A DNA stretch of 64,000 nt from an uncultured beta proteobacterium (GTDB lineage Bacteria; Pseudomonadota; Gammaproteobacteria; Burkholderiales; Rhodocyclaceae), in assembly GCA_903908065.1 (NCBI GenBank), contig CAIVQO010000066.1, positions 1-64,000 on the forward strand. The letters run 5' to 3'. Positions 3,979 to 12,977 of this stretch are shown here, in pieces. Numbering within the stretch: position 1 is the stretch's first letter; every line of letters starts with the position of its first letter. The position numbers and the translations under genes are program-made. The notes under the pieces are model-generated. The model saw only the letters and a list, made by a program, of their open reading frames with translations. It was not told the origin of the DNA and searched no databases.

Positions 3979-4014
3979 AAAAAACAAACCCTGCCGAAGC
4001 AGGGTTTGTTTTTT
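3979..4014. terminator. Bidirectional terminator between dut and the fcc operon
   Basis: AAACAAACCCTGC, a CGAA loop and GCAGGGTTTG, then a T-run, with A-rich sequence on the other side. The stem is perfect and serves both the + strand coaBC-dut transcript and the minus-strand cytochrome operon. Confidence 0.9.
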
Positions 4015-4029
4015 GGTGCGACGACAGGC

Positions 4030-5310
4030 TCAGGTCGACATTTCGGTGAGGATGTTCTTCAGCCAGCTCTCGGCGTAGATCGCTTCCATCTTCGCGGCCG
4101 AAAAGTCCGCCGGGGAGACGCCACCGGAGTTCGGTACGGCGATGATCTTGCCTTCCTTGACCGCATATACAGCCGCAACGCTGACCGCTTCCTTGTCGGT
4201 GATGTAGCTGTAGCAGGTGTTGATGCCGGACATTTCGGTGGTTTCCTTGCCGTTCATCAGCGCGACGATGTTCGTTGCACAGATCTTGGCTTCGGAGTTC
4301 GCCGAGTAGCCCGACTTCGGCATCGCGCCGGCGACGCAGGCGTCACCAATGACATGGATGCCGGCCTGCTTGGTCGATTCGAAGGTGGTCGGATTGACCG
4401 GGCACCAGTTCTTGTCCTCTCCCACCAGGCCGGCAGCGACGGCGATCTGCCCGGCGCGCTGCGGGGGAATCACGTTGATGACATCGCCCTTGACATCTTC
4501 CAGGCCCTCGATCAGCACCGTCATCTTGCCGGGCTCGACTTCGGTAACCTTCTTTGCCGGGCGGTAATCGATGATGCCTTCGTAGTTGTCCTTCCAGCCC
4601 TTCTTGAACAGGCCGCCCTTGGAGGTGATGTCCGGATTGGCGTCGAGCACCACGAGCTTCGACTTCGGCTTGTTCTTCTTCAGGTAATGGGCCACCATGC
4701 TGGCGCGCTCGTAAGGTCCGGGCGGGCAGCGGTAGGGAGCCAGCGGCACGGTCATGACCATGGTGCCGCCGTCCTTCATGGCCTCGAGCTGCTTGCGCAG
4801 CAGGACGGTCTGCGGACCTGCCTTCCAGGCGTGGGGCATGATCTCCATGGCCGCCGCGTCATAGCCCTTCATCTCCTCCAGCCGGAAATCGACGCCGGGC
4901 GAGAGCACCAGGCGGTCATAGCTGACGGTACCCTTGCTGGTGGTCACCACCTTGCCGGCGGGGTCGATGCCGGTGACTTCGGCCTGCACCACCTTGACGC
5001 CATGATTGGCGGCGAGCTTGTCGAACTTGATGGTCAGCGGATTCAGATCCTTGATCACGCCGCCGATGTAGAGGTTGCTGAACGGGCAGGAAACAAAATG
5101 ATCATTGCGCTCGATCAGCACCACCTCGATGCTCTTGTCCATCATGCGGATGTACTTGGCGGCGATGGTGCCGCCGTAGCCGCCGCCAACCACCACCACG
5201 CGCTTGGCGCCCTTGGGCATCAGTTCGGCCGCACGGCCGATCATCGGCAGGCCTGCGGCGCCAACGCCGGCGCCGGCGAGCTTGAGAAAACTTCTGCGAT
5301 CCAGTGTCAT
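4030..5310 (-). CDS. fccB: Flavocytochrome c sulfide dehydrogenase, flavoprotein subunit (FccB/SoxF type)
   Basis: 426 residues. A Tat signal (DRRSFLKLAG at 4-13) precedes an FAD-binding GGGYGG at 42-47. Cys75 in HFVSCPF matches the Cys that covalently holds FAD in Allochromatium FccB. Cys195 (YRCPPGP) and Cys366 (INTCYSY) lie at the spacings of the redox disulfide Cys161-Cys337, so all three catalytic cysteines are kept. The family oxidises sulfide in the periplasm and passes electrons to a partner diheme cytochrome. It is the last gene of a three-gene operon, 13 nt after that cytochrome. Sulfide as substrate is inferred from the family; another thiol or sulfur compound is possible. Confidence 0.85.
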   Translation of the reverse strand: MTLDRRSFLKLAGAGVGAAGLPMIGRAAELMPKGAKRVVVVGGGYGGTIAAKYIRMMDKSIEVVLIERNDHFVSCPFSNLYIGGVIKDLNPLTIKFDKLAANHGVKVVQAEVTGIDPAGKVVTTSKGTVSYDRLVLSPGVDFRLEEMKGYDAAAMEIMPHAWKAGPQTVLLRKQLEAMKDGGTMVMTVPLAPYRCPPGPYERASMVAHYLKKNKPKSKLVVLDANPDITSKGGLFKKGWKDNYEGIIDYRPAKKVTEVEPGKMTVLIEGLEDVKGDVINVIPPQRAGQIAVAAGLVGEDKNWCPVNPTTFESTKQAGIHVIGDACVAGAMPKSGYSANSEAKICATNIVALMNGKETTEMSGINTCYSYITDKEAVSVAAVYAVKEGKIIAVPNSGGVSPADFSAAKMEAIYAESWLKNILTEMST

Positions 5311-5323
5311 GTTCCCGTCCCCC

Positions 5324-5902
5324 TTATTTCACGCTGGCGTAGAAGTGCAGCAGCGCATCGATGTCTTCCTTGGACAGCGGCTTGACCTTCTCCGCCATCT
5401 TTTCCGGCATCTTGCGTTTGCCGGACTGATACAGCTCCATCTGCATCTGCAGGTAGGGCAGCCACTGGCTTGCCATGACCGGCGTGTCGTCCTTGCCGTC
5501 CTTGCCATCGTCGAGATGGCAGCGCGAACAGTTGGCTTCCTGCAGGTCGGAACCCTTCTTCACCTTGGCGGCATCGACGGCCTGGCTGGTGGCGTGGAAT
5601 TTCTGTTTCGAGAAGTAGTCGCCCATCGCCTCGATTTCAGCATCGCTATAGCCCTTGGCCAGGCGACCCATGACGGTGGAGGGACGCTCGCCGCTCTTGA
5701 ACTTCTTCATCGCGTCGACAATGGCGGTCTTCGACTGGCTCGCCAGACTGGGCATGCTCGGCCCGGCGCTGCCGCCATTCGTGCCGTGGCATCCGGCACA
5801 CGCGTTCGACAGCATCGCGGCCGACGGCGGCGCGGCTTGCGCGATCGCCGATACAGCCAGGACGCTGGTGGCCAGCGCCCACTTCTTCCACTTCATCGCC
5901 AT
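5324..5902 (-). CDS. Diheme cytochrome c (c4/FccA-like), partner of FccB
   Basis: 192 residues with a Sec signal peptide (about 1-23, cutting after IAQA). Two c-type heme motifs are present, CAGCH at 35-39 and CSRCH at 125-129, giving two cytochrome c domains as in cytochrome c4 and FccA. The ATG at 5902 is favoured by a strong GGAGGAG upstream. It sits between the hexaheme fusion gene (49 nt) and fccB (13 nt), so it is very likely the electron acceptor of the flavoprotein in the periplasm. It could equally be called a class I c4; context decides for an FccA role. Confidence 0.85.
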   Translation of the reverse strand: MAMKWKKWALATSVLAVSAIAQAAPPSAAMLSNACAGCHGTNGGSAGPSMPSLASQSKTAIVDAMKKFKSGERPSTVMGRLAKGYSDAEIEAMGDYFSKQKFHATSQAVDAAKVKKGSDLQEANCSRCHLDDGKDGKDDTPVMASQWLPYLQMQMELYQSGKRKMPEKMAEKVKPLSKEDIDALLHFYASVK

Positions 5903-5951
5903 TATTTCTCCTCCTTGGATTTAAAAAGTACTGCCTGCAACTCCATGCTGC

Positions 5952-7706
5952 TTACTGCTTCTGGATGTCAATGTAGTTTTTTACGCCCGGATTGGCCTTG
6001 TCGAGACCGAACTGATAGCCCAGCGAGACATAGTGGAATCGGGCATTGGTGAAGTCTTCGTGAATCGCGAAGCCAAAGTTATACACCTTATCCGTGCCAA
6101 TGACATGGTCGCCCTTGCCGCCGCCGGCCAGCGCGCGCTCGAAGATGACAACCCACTTGTTGCCTTCCTTCTTGCCTTCCGCCTTCAACTGGCTCTTGCC
6201 ACCGGACATATGCCTTTCGCTATCTACCCAGCCGTCGGCCGGTCCCTGACCCTTGCCGCTGCGGAACTGGATCAGGTCCATGAATTTGCCGCTGGCGAGG
6301 TCGGCCCCCGTGATGTATTTGGTCTTCTTGTCGTCCTTGGCATCCTTCATGGTGCGCAGGTCGGTATGGCAGGTACCCCAGCATCCGTTCAGTTCGCTGC
6401 CTTCGACCGTGCCGCCGCCATCGAACATCATGGTCAGCTTGACTTCGTTTTTCGGGTCGAGCTTTTTGTCGCCGTTCTTCGGCGGTACCCATTCGAAGCG
6501 GAAGAAGATCTTGTCGCCATCGTGGGTGGCCTGGAAGGTGACCGGAATGAAGCCGACCTTGCCCGCGGGCGGATTGGGTTCCAGCACCGTCTTCGACGCG
6601 CCCACCGGCTTGCCGGCAACGATGGCCGCGCCCACCTCGTTGGCATCGCCTTCGTGACAGCGGGCGCATGCGCGTTTCTTTTCGAGGATGTCGGATGCCG
6701 AGGAATGGTCGGGTTTGTTCATCACCCATTCCAGAGCGGCTTGCCCTGGGTAGAACACCTTGATGGTGCGCGTCGGAACTTTGCTCCAGTCCATGGCCTT
6801 GACGCTGCCACCGGCGCCAGCGGCAGTCTCACCGCTCTCGGCCTTTTCCTTCTTGGCTGGTTTGGCTCCATCCGTCCCGGCGGTCATGGCCTGCGTCGCG
6901 GCGGTCATCACGTTGGCCGCTGCTGCGGCCGTCGTGGTCGCGGCCGCAGCGGTCGCCTTCGCGGCACCGGCAACGGGTTCTGAGGGGGCCGTGGCTGGAG
7001 CAGCGGCGGGCGTGGGTGCCGGAGCGGCGGCAGGGGCACTTGGCGTGGCTGCCGGGGGCGCGGCGGAAGCCGCAGCATCCGCAGCCTTGCCATCCTTTTC
7101 CAACAGGTGGTGCACCGGCTTGTGGGCGATGCCCTTGTGACAGTCGATACAGGTCTTGCCGTCCTCAACGGCGCCCTCGTGCTTGGCCACCGAACGATCT
7201 TTCTGCTTGGTGGTATCCATCTTGTCGAACTTGTGGCAATTGCGACATTCCTTGGAATCCGATTCCTTCATGTGTGCCCAGACCCTTTTTGCCATGGTCA
7301 GTCGATAGGCTTCAAACTTTTCCGGTGTGTCGATGGTGCCGAGGATCTGACCGATCACGTCCTTGGACGCGAACACCTTCTGCGTGAGCTTGCGGGCGTA
7401 GTCGAAGGGTTCCTTGCTGCTGGCGACGTGGCAATCCGCACAGCCGACGCTGGTGCCGGTGCGATTGCTGTAATGCACCGTTTTCTTGAGTTCTTCATAA
7501 GGGGTGCGCATCGTGTGGCATGAAAGGCAGAACTCGGTGCGGTTGGTGAACTCCATTCCCGTGTTGAGGCCACCCCAGATCAGGATGCCGCCCAGTACGC
7601 CAATCACGATCATGCGTGCCATCGAGCACTGCGGCGGACGTTTCAGCCAACGGAACAGGCCTTTTCCGGTTTCAGGTGAGGAGGCGTCAGTCGAGTTCTC
7701 AGTCAT
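5952..7706 (-). CDS. NapC/NirT-type multiheme cytochrome c fused to an ethylbenzene-dehydrogenase-like heme domain
   Basis: 584 residues from the ATG at 7706, preceded by GGAA at proper spacing. A membrane anchor (31-47) is followed by a NapC/NirT-like tetraheme domain with CLSCH (60), CADCH (89), CRNCH (154) and CIDCH (186). Next comes a long Ala/Pro/Thr linker (about 203-320), then a C-terminal domain like the heme-binding ethylbenzene dehydrogenase subunit family. That domain has CARCH at 347 and an unusual CWGTCH at 442 with three residues between the cysteines. NapC proteins move electrons between the quinone pool and periplasmic partners. As first gene of the fcc operon it may connect FccAB to quinones; that link is inference. 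Confidence 0.8.
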   Translation of the reverse strand: MTENSTDASSPETGKGLFRWLKRPPQCSMARMIVIGVLGGILIWGGLNTGMEFTNRTEFCLSCHTMRTPYEELKKTVHYSNRTGTSVGCADCHVASSKEPFDYARKLTQKVFASKDVIGQILGTIDTPEKFEAYRLTMAKRVWAHMKESDSKECRNCHKFDKMDTTKQKDRSVAKHEGAVEDGKTCIDCHKGIAHKPVHHLLEKDGKAADAAASAAPPAATPSAPAAAPAPTPAAAPATAPSEPVAGAAKATAAAATTTAAAAANVMTAATQAMTAGTDGAKPAKKEKAESGETAAGAGGSVKAMDWSKVPTRTIKVFYPGQAALEWVMNKPDHSSASDILEKKRACARCHEGDANEVGAAIVAGKPVGASKTVLEPNPPAGKVGFIPVTFQATHDGDKIFFRFEWVPPKNGDKKLDPKNEVKLTMMFDGGGTVEGSELNGCWGTCHTDLRTMKDAKDDKKTKYITGADLASGKFMDLIQFRSGKGQGPADGWVDSERHMSGGKSQLKAEGKKEGNKWVVIFERALAGGGKGDHVIGTDKVYNFGFAIHEDFTNARFHYVSLGYQFGLDKANPGVKNYIDIQKQ

Positions 7707-8095: not shown

Positions 8096-9688
8096 TTATT
8101 CCATCGCTTCGTACAGCGGCAGGGTAAGGAATTCCGGATATTCCGGGGTCAGGCTCATCTTGTCGAAAATCACCGCCGCCTGATCGTAGGTATCGGTCTT
8201 TTCTCCCTGGGCCGTGACCACAGCCTTCACCTTGGCCAGTTCTTCGCCGATCATGCCACGCACCATTTCGGCGGTGACCTTGCGGCCGTCGTCGAGCTTG
8301 CCCTTGGGCGAGACCACCCACTGCCAGACCTGCGAGCGGGAGATCTCAGCCGTGGCGGCATCTTCCATCAGGTTGTGGATCGGCACGCAGCCGTTGCCGG
8401 CCAACCAGGAACCGAGGTAGTGGATGCCGACGTTGATGTTGTTGCGCACGCCGGCCTCGGTGATGGGTTGCTCGGGTTGGAAATTCATCCAATCCTTGGG
8501 CCCGAAGGTGTCGGTGCGCTGCTTTTCCCACTGGTTGGGCTTGTCGCCGAGCACCTTGACGAATTCCTCCATGGCGATCGGCACCAGGCCCGGGTGGGCC
8601 ACCCAGCCGCCGTCGTAGCCGTCGTTGGCGTCGCGGGTCTTGTCGTGGCGGATGCCGGCGAGCGCTTTTTCGTTGGCGACCGGATCGTTCTTGATCGGGA
8701 TCAGCGCGCTCATGCCGCCCATGGCCGGGGCGCCGCGCTTGTGGCAGGCCTTGACCAGCGCCAGCGCATAGCTGCGCATGAAGGGCACTTCCATGGTGAT
8801 CGCGCCGCGGTTGGCCAGGCAAAAATCCTTGTTCTTCTTGAATTTCTTGATGCAGGAGAAGATGTAGTCCCAACGGCCGGCATTGAGGCCGGCGCTGTGC
8901 TCGCGCAGCTCATAAAGGATTTCTTCCATCTCGAAGGTGGCGAGGATGGTTTCCACCAGCACGGTGGCCTTGATGGTGCCGCGCGCCATGCCGATGTGGT
9001 CCTGGGCCATGCAGAAGATTTCGTTCCACAGACGGGCTTCGAGGTGGGACTCCATCTTCGGCAGGTAGTAGAAGGGGCCGTCACCGCGTGCAACCTGTTC
9101 CTTGGCGTTGTGGAAGAACACCAGAGCAAAGTCGAAGATGCCACCGGAGACGCGCTGGCCGTCGATCAGCACGTGCTTCTCGTCGAGGTGCCATCCGCGC
9201 GGGCGAATCTGCAGCGTGGCGATCTTGTCGTTGAGCTTGTATTCCTTGCCGGCCTCGTTCTTGAAGCTCAACTGGCGGCGGATGGCCTTGTACAGATTGA
9301 CCTGGCCCTGGATCTGGTTGTCCCACTTCGGGCTGTTGGAGTCCTCGAAGTCGGTCATGTAGGAATCCGCGCCCGAGTTGTAGGCGTTGATGATCATCTT
9401 GGCTTCGACCGGGCCGGTAATCTCGACGCGGCGGCATTCCAGTGCCTTGGGCAGCGGCGCGATCTTCCAGTCGCCTTCACGGATGTGCTTGGTCTCGGGC
9501 AGGAAGTCCGGCATCTCGCCGGCGTCGATACGGGCCTGGCGTTCGATGCGCTTCTTCAGCAGTTCCTGGCGACGCGGCTCGAAGGCGCGATGCAGCTTGG
9601 CGACCAGTTCCAGCGCCTCGGGCGTCAGGATGGTGGCGTATTCGGCGGAAACGGGGGCGTTGATCTGGACGCCGGCGGGCAGGGCCAT
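8096..9688 (-). CDS. aceB: Malate synthase A
   Basis: 530 residues from the ATG at about 9688, the usual AceB length, with AAGGAG six bases upstream deciding the start over an upstream TTG. Characteristic segments include DFEDSNSPKW, RPRGWHLDEKH and ARGTIKATVLVETI, where the glyoxylate and Mg2+ binding residues lie, and WQWVVSPKGKL near the C-terminus. It condenses acetyl-CoA with glyoxylate to malate in the glyoxylate bypass. A LysR gene is divergent, about 100 nt away, and aceA lies 2 kb further right on the same strand but is separately terminated. It is expected to be induced on acetate or fatty acids. Confidence 0.96.
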   Translation of the reverse strand: MALPAGVQINAPVSAEYATILTPEALELVAKLHRAFEPRRQELLKKRIERQARIDAGEMPDFLPETKHIREGDWKIAPLPKALECRRVEITGPVEAKMIINAYNSGADSYMTDFEDSNSPKWDNQIQGQVNLYKAIRRQLSFKNEAGKEYKLNDKIATLQIRPRGWHLDEKHVLIDGQRVSGGIFDFALVFFHNAKEQVARGDGPFYYLPKMESHLEARLWNEIFCMAQDHIGMARGTIKATVLVETILATFEMEEILYELREHSAGLNAGRWDYIFSCIKKFKKNKDFCLANRGAITMEVPFMRSYALALVKACHKRGAPAMGGMSALIPIKNDPVANEKALAGIRHDKTRDANDGYDGGWVAHPGLVPIAMEEFVKVLGDKPNQWEKQRTDTFGPKDWMNFQPEQPITEAGVRNNINVGIHYLGSWLAGNGCVPIHNLMEDAATAEISRSQVWQWVVSPKGKLDDGRKVTAEMVRGMIGEELAKVKAVVTAQGEKTDTYDQAAVIFDKMSLTPEYPEFLTLPLYEAME

Positions 9689-9755
9689 GGGGAACTCCTT
9701 GGTTGGGTTACTGGAATGGTCGAATTCTATTCTTGCCAAATTGGATATAGAAGCT

Positions 9756-9794
9756 ACTATTCGATCAAATTATTCGTGACAAATAGTATCGAAT
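9756..9794. promoter_or_regulatory. Nested inverted repeats in the aceB-lysR divergent region (candidate operator)
   Basis: ACTATT (9756-9761) pairs with AATAGT (9782-9787), and ATTCGAT (9759-9765) pairs with ATCGAAT (9788-9794). The arms flank an AT-rich centre immediately before the LysR start. This is the layout expected for autoregulation by a LysR protein, but the exact T-N11-A box is not decided. Confidence 0.45.
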
Positions 9795-10695
9795 GGATCA
9801 ATTCAAGCAAATCTCAGCCTTTGTAAATGTCGCAAGCCGCGGCAGCTTGTCGGCGGCGGCGCGTACCGAGGGGGTGACGCCGGCCATCATCGGACGTCGG
9901 CTCGATGCCCTTGAAGAGCGACTCGGGGCCAAGTTGCTGCTGCGCACGACACGGCGCATCTCATTGACCTTCGAGGGCGCGGCCTTCCTCGAAGACTGCC
10001 AGCGCATCCTGCGCGAACTGGCCGACGCCGAGGGCGCCGTCAGTCTCGGCGGCATTCGGCCGGGCGGGCATTTGAAGGTGTCGGCGCCGGCCGGCTTCGG
10101 CCGGCGCCATGTCGGGCCCCTGGTGATGGACTTCATGGCGGAAAACCCGGAGGTCACCGTCAGCCTCGATTTGTCGGACCGCGTGGTCGACCTGGTCGAA
10201 GAGAACGTGGACTGCGCGATACGCATCGGCGACCTGGCCGATTCCAGCCTGATCAGCATCCGCCTTGGTGAAATGCGCCGGGTGGTGGTCGCCAGTCCGG
10301 CCTATGTCACCAAATTCGGCGTACCGTCAGCGCCGACTTTCCTCGCCGAGCACAACTGCCTGTCGCTGCGCCAGCAGCGCGGCTGGACTTTGCGGAGTGA
10401 CGGCGAAGTGCGCGTCGTCAAAGTGAGCGGTGGCTTTGAATGCAACGATGGTGCCGTGCTTCATGACTGGGTGGTGGCCGGCAAGGGCCTAGCCTGGCGT
10501 TCCCTGTGGGAGGTGGGGGCAGATATCAAGGCCGGGCGACTGGTGACCGTGCTCGACGAGTTTGCGGCACCGCCGGTCGGCATTCATGCCGTGGTGCCGC
10601 AGCGCCGTCATCTGCCACTGCGGGTGCGACTGTTCATCGACCTGCTCAAGCTGCGCTGGCGCGATGCGGCTTACTGGACCGCCGGGGATGCCTGA
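9793..10695 (+). CDS. LysR family transcriptional regulator, divergent from aceB
   Basis: 300 residues. An N-terminal winged helix-turn-helix (SLSAAARTEGVTPAIIGRRLDALE at about 18-41) is followed by a LysR effector-binding domain from about residue 90. Divergent orientation with malate synthase suggests it controls aceB and perhaps itself; the effector is unknown. The ATG at 9793 gives the usual N-terminus (MDQFKQISAFVNVA) although no good Shine-Dalgarno is visible. The last 25 nt overlap the convergent hydrolase gene. Closely related Rhodocyclaceae regulators next to aceB would support the link, but I could not search. Confidence 0.88.
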   Translation: MDQFKQISAFVNVASRGSLSAAARTEGVTPAIIGRRLDALEERLGAKLLLRTTRRISLTFEGAAFLEDCQRILRELADAEGAVSLGGIRPGGHLKVSAPAGFGRRHVGPLVMDFMAENPEVTVSLDLSDRVVDLVEENVDCAIRIGDLADSSLISIRLGEMRRVVVASPAYVTKFGVPSAPTFLAEHNCLSLRQQRGWTLRSDGEVRVVKVSGGFECNDGAVLHDWVVAGKGLAWRSLWEVGADIKAGRLVTVLDEFAAPPVGIHAVVPQRRHLPLRVRLFIDLLKLRWRDAAYWTAGDA

Positions 10696-11561
10696 GCGGC
10701 TGGCCGACCGAAGGCCGGGCGCAGGAAGTTGTCGAGCCCGCGGATCCACGCTTCGCGACTGAAGACAAAGCCTTCATTGTGGCCGCCCTCGATTTCGAGG
10801 AAGCGCTTGGGTGGCCTGGCCGCCGCAAACAACTGCTCGCCGTGGGCAAAAGGAATGATGTCGTCGCTTCGGCTATGGATCACCAGCACCGGTGACGTGA
10901 TCGATGCCATGCGCTCGCGCGTGTCATAACGGATGCGGGCGAGCAGGCGTACCGGCAGCCACGGATAAATCTGTGAGCCGAGGTCCGGCACCGAGGTGAA
11001 GGTCGAGGCCATGACCAGCGCTGCCGGCCGCTGGACGGCGGCCAGTTGCGCCGCCACCGCGCCGCCCAGTGATTCGCCAAACAGGGCGATCCGGGCGGGC
11101 GGGTAGCCGAGGGCTTGCGTGCCATGACGCCATGCGGCGGCCGCATCGCGGTAGGTGCCGTCTTCCGACGGCTGGCCGCTACTGCGACCATAGCCGCGGT
11201 AGTCGAAGATCAGGCTGGCGTAGCCGAGCTCATGGAACATGCGCAGGTAATCCAGGCGATGGCCGATGTTTCCGGCATTGCCATGAAAGATCAGGATCAG
11301 GCCGTGCGCAGTCTTGCCGGCCTGGGCTGGGACATGCCAGGCGTCCAGCGTTTCGCCGTCGTCAGTGGTGAGTGTCAGCGCATCGAAGCGCAGGCCAATG
11401 GCCGCCGGTGTCGCCGGATAGCCGCGATCCATCGCTGCCTGGAATACCAGCGCGTCCTGCTTGAAATAAATCAGGGCGGCCAATCCTAGGTAAACCAGGA
11501 AAGCGATCTGCAGCGCCGACCAGAGCATCGACTTCCCATTCTGTTTGCGTCCGCGTTCCAT
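10671..11561 (-). CDS. Alpha/beta hydrolase, membrane-anchored (YfhR/BEM46-like)
   Basis: 296 residues. One N-terminal membrane helix (about 12-32) precedes an alpha/beta-hydrolase domain with the oxyanion segment FHGNAGN, the nucleophile elbow GESLGG, the acid in SRSDDIIP and the catalytic His in EGGHNEG. The domain probably faces the periplasm, as for YfhR/BEM46 proteins, whose substrates are unknown. A second possible start is the internal ATG 11 codons in. The 3' end overlaps the LysR gene. No operon partner is evident. Confidence 0.85.
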   Translation of the reverse strand: MERGRKQNGKSMLWSALQIAFLVYLGLAALIYFKQDALVFQAAMDRGYPATPAAIGLRFDALTLTTDDGETLDAWHVPAQAGKTAHGLILIFHGNAGNIGHRLDYLRMFHELGYASLIFDYRGYGRSSGQPSEDGTYRDAAAAWRHGTQALGYPPARIALFGESLGGAVAAQLAAVQRPAALVMASTFTSVPDLGSQIYPWLPVRLLARIRYDTRERMASITSPVLVIHSRSDDIIPFAHGEQLFAAARPPKRFLEIEGGHNEGFVFSREAWIRGLDNFLRPAFGRPAAQASPAVQ

Positions 11562-11608
11562 GACTTGCCCAGCCTAGCCCCGGTATCTGCCGATGACTTT
11601 AACGCAAA

Positions 11609-11640
11609 CAAAAAGGCCGCAACGGTATTCCGTTGCGGCC
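11609..11640 (-). terminator. Intrinsic terminator of aceA
   Basis: GGCCGCAACG and CGTTGCGGCC form a perfect ten-base stem around GTATTC, followed on the minus strand by a T-run. It lies about 27 nt after the aceA stop. Confidence 0.9.
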
Positions 11641-11666
11641 CTGGATGGAGCGATGTGGCGTAAGGC

Positions 11667-12977
11667 TTAGTGGAACTGTTCTTCCTCGGTCGAGCCGTGC
11701 AGCGCGGTCACCGACGAGGCACCGCCCTGGATCACGGTGGTGACGTCGTCGAAGTAGCCGACGCCGACTTCCTGCTGGTGCGAGACGAAGGTGTAACCCT
11801 TGTCGCGCGCGGCGAACTCGGGCTCCTGCACCATGTCGACATAGTGCTTCATGCCTTCGCCGCGGGCATAGGCGTGGGCGAACTGGAAGGTCTGGAACCA
11901 GTTGATGTGGATGCCGGCCAGGGTGATGAACTGGTACTTGTAGCCCATCGCGGCGAGCTCGTCCTGGAACTTGGCGATGGTCTTGTCGTCGAGGTTCTTC
12001 TTCCAGTTGAAGGACGGCGAGCAGTTGTACGACAGCAGCTTGCCGGGCGAGGCCGCCTGCACGGCCTGGGCGAATTCGCGGGCGAAGCCGAGGTCGGGCT
12101 TGCCGGTTTCGCACCACACCAGGTCGGCGTAGGGGGCGTAGGCGACGCCGCGGCTGATCGACTGCTCAAGGCCGTTCTTGACGCGGTAGAAGCCTTCCGG
12201 GGTGCGCTCGCCGGTGACGAAGGGCTTGTCGTTGGCGTCGTGGTCGGAGGTCAGCAGGTTGGCGGCTTCGGCATCGGTGCGGGCCAGGATGATGGTCGGC
12301 ACGCCCATGGTGTCGGCGGCGAAGCGCGCGGCGATCAACTTCTCCACAGCCTCGTTGGTCGGCACCAGCACCTTGCCACCCATGTGGCCGCACTTCTTCA
12401 CGGCCGCCAGCTGGTCTTCGAAATGCACGCCGGCAGCGCCGGCGGTGATCATGTTCTTCATCAGTTCGAAGGCGTTCAGCACGCCGCCGAAGCCGGCTTC
12501 TGCGTCTGCAACGATGGGCAGGAAGTAGTCGATGTATTCCTTGCTTTCCGGATCAATGCCGCGCGACCACTGGATCTCGTCGGCACGCTTGAAGGTGTTG
12601 TTGATGCGGCGGACCATGGTCGGCACTGAGTCGTACGCGTACAGCGACTGGTCCGGATACATGGTCTCGGAGGTGTTGCCGTCGGCGGCAACCTGCCAGC
12701 CCGAGAGATAAACGGCTTCGAGGCCGGCTTTGGCCTGCTGCATGGCCTGGCCCGCGCTGATGGCGCCGAAGGCATTGACGTAACCCTTCTTGGCGGTGCC
12801 ATTGACCAGCGACCAGAGCTTTTCGGCGCCGCGCTTGGCGACGGTGTACTCGATCGGGAAGGTGCCGCGCAGGCGCACGACGTCGTCGGCGCTGTAACCA
12901 CGCTTGATGCCTTTCCAGCGGGGGTTTTCGGCCCAGTCCTTGGCCAGGGCGGCGGCTTGTGCTTTGCGATCAGTCAT
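11667..12977 (-). CDS. aceA: Isocitrate lyase
   Basis: 436 residues, the length of E. coli AceA. The catalytic signature KKCGHMGGK has its Cys at 196. Substrate and Mg2+ binding segments such as [11 protein letters not shown] and [10 protein letters not shown] are present. It splits isocitrate to glyoxylate and succinate, opening the glyoxylate bypass with aceB about 2 kb away. The start is supported by AAAGAGG eight bases upstream. An unusually AT-rich leader of about 200 nt, in contrast to the GC-rich surroundings, precedes it and probably carries the promoter and regulator sites. Confidence 0.97.

What the first reader, a model, noticed from the sequence alone, without database searches (positions are those of the whole stretch)
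4030..7706. Hexaheme NapC/ethylbenzene-dehydrogenase-like fusion in an operon with FccA and FccB
Seen: one protein with a membrane anchor, four CxxCH motifs of NapC type, a long Ala/Pro linker, and a second domain with CARCH and CWGTCH. It is first in an operon with a diheme cytochrome and an FccB flavoprotein keeping all three catalytic cysteines. Known: FccAB oxidises sulfide; NapC exchanges electrons with quinones; ethylbenzene-dehydrogenase-like domains bind heme. Inferred: a membrane-linked sulfide oxidation module that feeds quinones directly, or runs electrons outward. I know of no described system with this exact trio.
Basis: partly seen in the sequence, partly recalled or inferred. 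Interest (0 to 1): 0.85.

Follow-up and report, generated by a model that had tools for sequence, protein, structure and literature searches.

The report
Sulfide dehydrogenase wired to quinone module
A bacterium with sulfur-oxidation genes carries a gene set that seems to plug a known sulfide-oxidising enzyme into the membrane quinone pool, using an electron-carrying arm apparently borrowed from nitrite-respiration machinery and here fused into one protein.

Summary
On the minus strand, 4030-7706 encodes one operon: a NapC/EB_dh fusion (584 aa), a diheme FccA and an FccB. The last EB_dh motif is CX3CH, not CXXCH.

The gene set is conserved. Of 66 loci with this EB_dh type, 62 have FccA and FccB beside it; the other four end too soon to tell. 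NapC and EB_dh are fused in 15 of the 62, separate in 45, cut in two. The fusion arose once in this group.

The NapC + EB_dh pair is known: NapC-NapO/PcrQ-PcrO of Azospira suillum (PMC5845722). Here it also occurs beside NirS and before NapF. Fcc-linked EB_dh copies form one clade among NirS-linked ones.

Best reading: sulfide -> FccB -> FccA -> EB_dh -> NapC -> ubiquinone. The host has no MenD or MqnA/D over cut-off; dsrA is in 11 of 12 carriers against 6 of 49 others. Direction is inferred; characterised relatives run quinol-outward. No structure prediction was accepted. Six literature searches with capped lists showed no description.

Verdict: real, conserved, a new variant of known parts; it makes native ubiquinone reduction by a NapC-type cytochrome directly testable.

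The parts
5952..7706 (-). NapC/EB_dh fusion cytochrome (584 aa)
   Evidence: ORF; Pfam PF03264 5.8e-64 and PF09459 2.3e-27
7113..7625 (-). NapC/NirT tetraheme domain with N-terminal membrane anchor; CXXCH at residues 60, 89, 154, 186
   Evidence: Pfam match residues 28-198; M66, K110, H78, H176, H195 kept in 64/64 cassette NapCs, the window included; anchor read from the sequence
6795..7112 (-). Ala/Thr/Pro-rich linker; stands where unfused EB_dh proteins have a leader peptide of their own
   Evidence: leader judged by eye
6024..6791 (-). EB_dh-type cytochrome domain (NapO/PcrO-like)
6654..6668 (-). CARCH motif (CXXCH), residues 347-351
   Evidence: 67/67 conserved
6366..6383 (-). CWGTCH motif (CX3CH), residues 442-447
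   Evidence: 67/67 conserved for C, C and H
5324..5902 (-). FccA, diheme cytochrome subunit of flavocytochrome c sulfide dehydrogenase
   Evidence: best PDB matches 3vrd_A 3.3e-46 and 1fcd_C 1.3e-43
4030..5310 (-). FccB, flavoprotein subunit with a TAT-type leader; Cys75, Cys195, Cys366
   Evidence: PDB 5n1t_A, 3vrd_B, 1fcd_A; Pfam; TAT leader over cut-off in NCBIfam, under it in Pfam
3979..4014 (-). intrinsic terminator-like hairpin at the end of the operon
   Evidence: -24.1 kcal/mol for 61 nt, z -4.25; not in the list of the pattern scan

Best explanation
The operon encodes a membrane-tethered sulfide:ubiquinone electron route. FccB oxidises sulfide (or polysulfide) in the periplasm and passes electrons through the two FccA hemes to the EB_dh-type diheme domain, which hands them to the NapC tetraheme domain in the same chain, and NapC reduces ubiquinone. 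The fusion replaces free diffusion of a soluble NapO-like cytochrome by a flexible tether. Shown by sequence: domains, motifs, gene order and its conservation, tree positions. Inferred: heme loading, partner contacts, substrate, direction.
For: FccA and FccB beside the EB_dh gene in 62 of 66 loci, the other 4 cut by contig ends; NapC also present in 59 of the 62, the other 3 at contig starts, and all four in the order NapC, EB_dh, FccA, FccB by gene midpoints in 58 of 59 (L088 differs because its mechanical EB_dh frame begins far upstream). FccA and FccB are closest to solved FCSD subunits and keep the three catalytic cysteines. NapC keeps the heme-1 Met, the quinone-site Lys and the distal His residues. 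Cassette NapC and EB_dh are each one clade in subsampled quick trees. NapC also lies beside FccA-FccB without EB_dh in L119 and L120. dsrA in 11 of 12 carriers (10 over the cut-off) against 6 of 49 others; the host has SoxB. The host has no MqnA/D or MenD over cut-off, so ubiquinone is the likely partner; sulfide to quinone is downhill by 100-300 mV (passage of PMC5358917).
Against: The NapC-NapO, PcrQ-PcrO and ImoA results that I saw are all in the quinol-oxidising direction (PMC5845722, PMC9600427). NapC-type hemes are of low potential (ImoA 0 to -400 mV, passage of PMC13390432), so electrons would have to climb from FccA (inference). MenD is enriched among carriers (7 of 12 against 6 of 49), so menaquinone use in relatives is open. 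The host also has an SQR-like gene (301 bits, cut-off 525), so the route may be redundant. The host shows no DsrE over cut-off, although relatives do. The FccB group is not exclusive: four copies inside it (L121-L124) were not seen in a full set. No structure, expression or biochemistry.
Confidence: 0.57

Rival explanations
1. Electrons run from quinol outward: NapC and EB_dh feed FccAB, which works as a reductase of polysulfide, elemental sulfur or another disulfide-like substrate.
For: The relatives of the module with published tests work as quinol oxidases (PMC5845722; PMC9600427); the cassette EB_dh sits among NirS-linked copies that serve a reductase; MenD is enriched in carriers.
Against: The host lacks both menaquinone routes over cut-off, and ubiquinol to sulfur is uphill by the same potentials. 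Carriers mostly have dsrA, with dsrEFH beside it where read.
Confidence: 0.14
2. The NapC-EB_dh part is a two-way junction: FccAB, the quinone pool and periplasmic acceptors such as NirS or oxidase-linked cytochromes share electrons, with direction set by redox state.
For: NapC and NapO relatives are interchangeable between reductases (PMC5845722); the own genome also has a NirS-NapC-EB_dh set (L042); a gene scoring as an FccA-like diheme cytochrome lies on the opposite strand in 14 of the 66 loci, past fccB (Pfam on one of them, L047).
Against: Cassette NapC and EB_dh are clades of their own with fixed partners, which argues for a dedicated task.
Confidence: 0.17
3. FccAB of this clade does not use sulfide but another reduced sulfur or thiol compound; the wiring is as described.
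For: The FccB group is separate from other FccB copies of the family, and several genomes hold further FccB-like genes.
Against: All three FCSD cysteines and both FCSD domains are kept.
Confidence: 0.12

Closest known systems
NapC-NapO and PcrQ-PcrO of Azospira suillum PS (PMC5845722, passages)
   Same: Tetraheme NapC-type protein with an EbdC-related diheme c cytochrome; the napC-EB_dh-napF order was found here in 5 genomes of the host's family.
   Different: There two separate proteins carrying quinol electrons to nitrate or perchlorate reductase; here fused and placed with FccAB.
nirS-linked NapC + EB_dh, including fused forms on plasmids of Azospirillum, Aliiroseovarius and Ruegeria
   Same: Same two domains; fused in the 4 plasmid loci read, of 5 matched records (Pfam on one).
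   Different: Next to cytochrome cd1 nitrite reductase, and in the plasmids a copper-protein gene, not FccAB.
Flavocytochrome c sulfide dehydrogenase (1fcd, 3vrd, 5n1t)
   Same: FccA and FccB are clear members by sequence.
   Different: The classic enzyme is taken to reduce soluble cytochrome c, with no quinone-linked partner gene (recalled).
Sulfide:quinone oxidoreductase
   Same: Proposed net reaction.
   Different: SQR is one flavoprotein that reduces quinone itself; FccB matches SQR chains far more weakly (best 2.5e-12 against 3.9e-124 for FCSD).
ImoA of Sideroxydans lithotrophicus ES-1 (PMC9600427, PMC13390432)
   Same: NapC/NirT protein proposed to reduce quinone in a lithotroph whose genome lacks menaquinone genes.
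   Different: Iron oxidation; in the work seen it was shown in vivo only to oxidise quinol.

Membership tests
Flavocytochrome c sulfide dehydrogenase | FCSD domains in the flavoprotein | tested here: met
   FCSD_central 157.6 bits (cut-off 27), FCSD-flav_bind 68.7 (26)
Flavocytochrome c sulfide dehydrogenase | FAD-linking Cys and redox-active Cys pair | tested here: met
   Cys75, 195, 366 align with cysteines of 1fcd; kept in 63/63, 63/63, 62/62. The roles and numbers of the 1fcd cysteines are recalled
Flavocytochrome c sulfide dehydrogenase | Cytochrome c subunit related to FCSD FccA | tested here: met
   3vrd_A 3.3e-46
Flavocytochrome c sulfide dehydrogenase | Sulfide oxidation activity | not testable with these tools
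   needs bench work
NapC/NirT | Pfam PF03264 over cut-off, four CXXCH, membrane anchor | tested here: met
   215.4 bits against 24.1; motifs and anchor read from the sequence
NapC/NirT | NCBIfam napC_nirT (TIGR02161) curated cut-off | tested here: not met
   235 bits against 310.6: in the Pfam family, outside this subfamily model
NapC/NirT | Heme-1 Met, quinone-site Lys and acidic residue as in NrfH | tested here: met
   M66, K110, D116 align with NrfH M49, K82, D89 in a weak match (E 0.0012; NrfH roles recalled); 64/64 each, while 13 of 15 other NapCs have Glu at 116
NapO/PcrO | EB_dh-type c protein with two heme motifs, encoded with NapC | tested here: met
   related to napF-linked copies
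NapO/PcrO | Direct similarity to the A. suillum proteins | not tested
   their sequences were not fetched
Ethylbenzene dehydrogenase gamma subunit | PF09459 | tested here: met
   97 bits against 33.3; the profile match to 2ivf_C is only E 0.073
Ethylbenzene dehydrogenase gamma subunit | Encoded with molybdenum and iron-sulfur subunits | tested here: not met
   none among the neighbours scanned
Sulfide:quinone oxidoreductase | Flavoprotein is an SQR | tested here: not met
   PDB ranking; SQR_III model 111 bits against 525

The most novel reading that the evidence does not exclude
A quinol-oxidising arm of denitrification (NapC plus a NapO-like cytochrome, as beside NirS) was taken over by a sulfide dehydrogenase and now runs backwards, giving a multi-component sulfide:ubiquinone reductase; in Sulfuritalea-like bacteria its quinone-side parts fused into one protein with six heme motifs. 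It would be a dedicated inward-running NapC system in sulfur oxidation, of which I know no described case.
Probability: 0.5. Interest if true: 0.75.

Novelty: new variant of a known kind. Interest (0 to 1): 0.6.

Why it matters
Flavocytochrome c sulfide dehydrogenase is usually drawn as feeding cytochrome c, which saves less energy than feeding quinone (general knowledge). A fixed quinone-linked partner would change the energy budget predicted for uncultured sulfur oxidisers now annotated simply as fccAB. It also offers a clean case for the open question raised for ImoA: can a NapC/NirT protein natively reduce ubiquinone?

Tried and rejected
Viral contigs: no match. Considered and rejected: a unique oddity (66 loci hold the EB_dh type); a chance ORF (16 further fused loci); several fusions within this group (one search places all 17 fused rows in one 98/96 clade; its one 'split' row, L066, begins at its contig end and was mislabelled); an outer-membrane conduit at the locus (none among the neighbours). 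The class-wide draw (E 1e-30) gave no cassette-type EB_dh in 113 genomes other than the own one (best 47% identity), yet the named scan holds Thiobacillus, Comamonadaceae and Burkholderiaceae MAGs, so that draw misses carriers outside the family. DsrE in the own genome is only a weak hit below cut-off, while the G010 DsrE scores over it; the own dsr contig ends inside dsrB. So dsrEFH is unproven for the host itself; the names dsrM (below cut-off) and dsrL (no such model) in relatives are partly my reading. NapC-EB_dh pairs with neither NirS nor NapF nearby: L173, L175, L180, partner unknown.

Rows dropped before the counts: L024-L030 (same contigs as genome-contig loci), L001-L023 (short versions of other places), L106, L107, L109-L118 (Photobacterium NapC only), L108 (partial EB_dh followed by FccA and FccB). 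Kept although alike: L078, L080, L081; and L049 with L052, two copies from one MAG. Trees used part of the cassette loci and are quick trees without bootstrap. Of 20 further FccB loci, L119 and L120 were picked because hits lay side by side there; the other 18 showed no NapC hit, L121 being cut by its contig end.
Full report
Observation. The minus strand of 4030-7706 encodes a three-gene operon. The first product, 584 residues, has a NapC/NirT domain (residues 28-198) and an EB_dh domain (306-561) by Pfam; the second is a two-domain cytochrome c; the third an FCSD-type flavoprotein. Gaps are 49 and 13 bp, and a terminator-like hairpin follows at 3979-4014. The six motifs are CXXCH at residues 60, 89, 154 and 186, CARCH at 347 and CWGTCH at 442. 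The last is CX3CH. Both EB_dh motifs are kept in 67 of 67 sequences (66 loci and the window).

Identity of the Fcc part. FccA matches best the cytochrome subunits of solved FCSDs (3vrd_A 3.3e-46). FccB matches 5n1t_A, 3vrd_B and 1fcd_A; Cys75, Cys195 and Cys366 fall on 1fcd cysteines and are kept in 63/63, 63/63 and 62/62 rows with a letter there.

Conservation of the set. One scan of named genomes with the fusion protein as query gave 75 loci; fcc genes were not part of the query. FccA and FccB lie within 5 kb on the same strand in 62 of the 66; the other four (L049, L062, L096, L105) end too early to tell. Of the 62, NapC is seen in 59 (L066, L084 and L103 lie at contig starts), and by gene midpoints the order is NapC, EB_dh, FccA, FccB in 58 of 59; the exception, L088, has a mechanical EB_dh frame that starts far upstream. 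NapC and EB_dh are fused in 15 of the 62, separate in 45, and undecided in two cut by contig ends. The split EB_dh proteins have a leader of their own (by eye); in the fused form an Ala/Pro-rich linker of 59-107 residues takes its place (15 of 17 measured). All 17 fused rows fall in one clade (98/96), so the fusion arose once here. By title 60 of the 62 named loci are MAGs; they are assigned to Rhodocyclales, Sterolibacteriaceae, Thiobacillaceae, Comamonadaceae and Burkholderiaceae among others, and include Candidatus Desulfobacillus denitrificans and Candidatus Nitricoxidireducens bremensis. The paper on the first lists fccAB as sulfide dehydrogenase, and the word NapC does not occur in its main text (word counts and passages).

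What the NapC + EB_dh pair is. In the host's family EB_dh proteins 39-50% identical to the window's sit on the same stretch as cytochrome cd1 NirS in 9 of 9 loci L035-L043 (Pfam on 4 loci); NapC is seen in 6 of these 9. Nine further family loci show NirS, NapC and EB_dh together (L147; L174, L176, L177, L182-L186). The own genome has such a set (L042). In 5 further genomes the pair precedes a NapF over its curated cut-off. That is the napC-napO-napF order of Azospira suillum PS, where napC or napO deletion stops growth on nitrate and PcrQ-PcrO can take over (passages of PMC5845722). On alphaproteobacterial plasmids the pair is fused between a cd1-type gene and a copper-protein gene in the 4 loci read, of 5 matched records. 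So the fusion as such is not unique; the coupling to FccAB is the new element. In the EB_dh tree the Fcc-linked rows form one clade (100) that lies with NirS-linked rows under a fork of 95 (quick tree, midpoint root, 19 cassette rows), which suggests recruitment from the nitrite-reduction module. Cassette NapCs are also one clade (97; 25 rows). The FccB picture is less tidy: 36 cassette rows and four others (L121-L124) share a group supported at 99.

Recurrence. L119 has NapC directly upstream of FccA-FccB, and L120 NapC, an ankyrin-repeat gene, FccA, FccB; both lack EB_dh. Their FccBs group together (94), so this may be one further event. Against: the other 18 FccB loci fetched show no NapC hit, one of them cut by its contig end.

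Physiology. Of 61 family genomes, 12 carry the set. dsrA is found in 11 of 12 carriers (10 over the cut-off, one split over two contigs) and 6 of 49 others (Fisher 3e-7, or 5e-6 strict; kinship not corrected). In G010, dsrB, dsrE, dsrF, dsrH, a dsrC-family gene and dsrK follow, over cut-offs; DsrM is below and DsrL is my reading; G038 and G001 have the same genes by similarity. The own dsr contig ends inside dsrB and no DsrE over cut-off was found in the own genome, a point against. The host has SoxB and an SQR-like gene under its cut-off. MqnA/D is over cut-off in 0 of 61 genomes. MenD is over cut-off in 13 of 61: 7 of 12 carriers and 6 of 49 others, not the host. The host is therefore probably ubiquinone-only, while many carriers may also make menaquinone.

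Mechanism. Residues of the NapC quinone site are kept (M66, K110, D116 against NrfH in a weak match), with Asp at 116 in all 64 cassette NapCs where 13 of 15 others have Glu. Sulfide to quinone is favourable by 100-300 mV (passage of PMC5358917). I therefore prefer inward flow, sulfide to ubiquinone. This is inference: ImoA, the nearest case proposed to reduce quinone, was shown in vivo to oxidise quinol (PMC9600427, first of two parts read).

Literature. Six searches combining NapC, NirT, EB_dh and Fcc terms listed no paper that by title and start of abstract treats this gene set; most lists were capped at 15-20, I read passages of a few papers only, and most subscription papers are not held.

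Limits. Structure prediction was never accepted. Heme attachment to CX3CH, partner contacts, substrate and direction are untested.

Noticed in passing
L120 6281-6799: NapC beside FccA-FccB in which the first Cys of the second heme motif is Tyr (YADCH); ankyrin-repeat gene between, a sulfite-oxidase-type molybdoenzyme and a cytochrome with two CXXCH downstream.
   Followed up: partly
G050 loci L056, L121, L122: One genome holds three FccB genes of the cassette group: one in the full set, one (L122) with FccA but no NapC hit, one cut by the contig end.
   Followed up: partly
the 12 carriers among 61 family genomes: MenD is over cut-off in 6 of 7 carriers with split genes but 1 of 5 with the fusion; small numbers.
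   Followed up: no
L137 6346-7980 (own genome): A second FccB-like frame of 544 aa whose flavoprotein part starts about 100 residues later than in FccB (start codon mechanical), with no FccA hit in the stretch.
   Followed up: no
L144 (G050): NapC beside an MtrB/PioB porin and a protein with ten CXXCH, a possible extracellular electron conduit.
   Followed up: no
window 8096-12977: Malate synthase and isocitrate lyase genes next to the operon; malate synthase also lies upstream of the cassette in many relatives.
   Followed up: no
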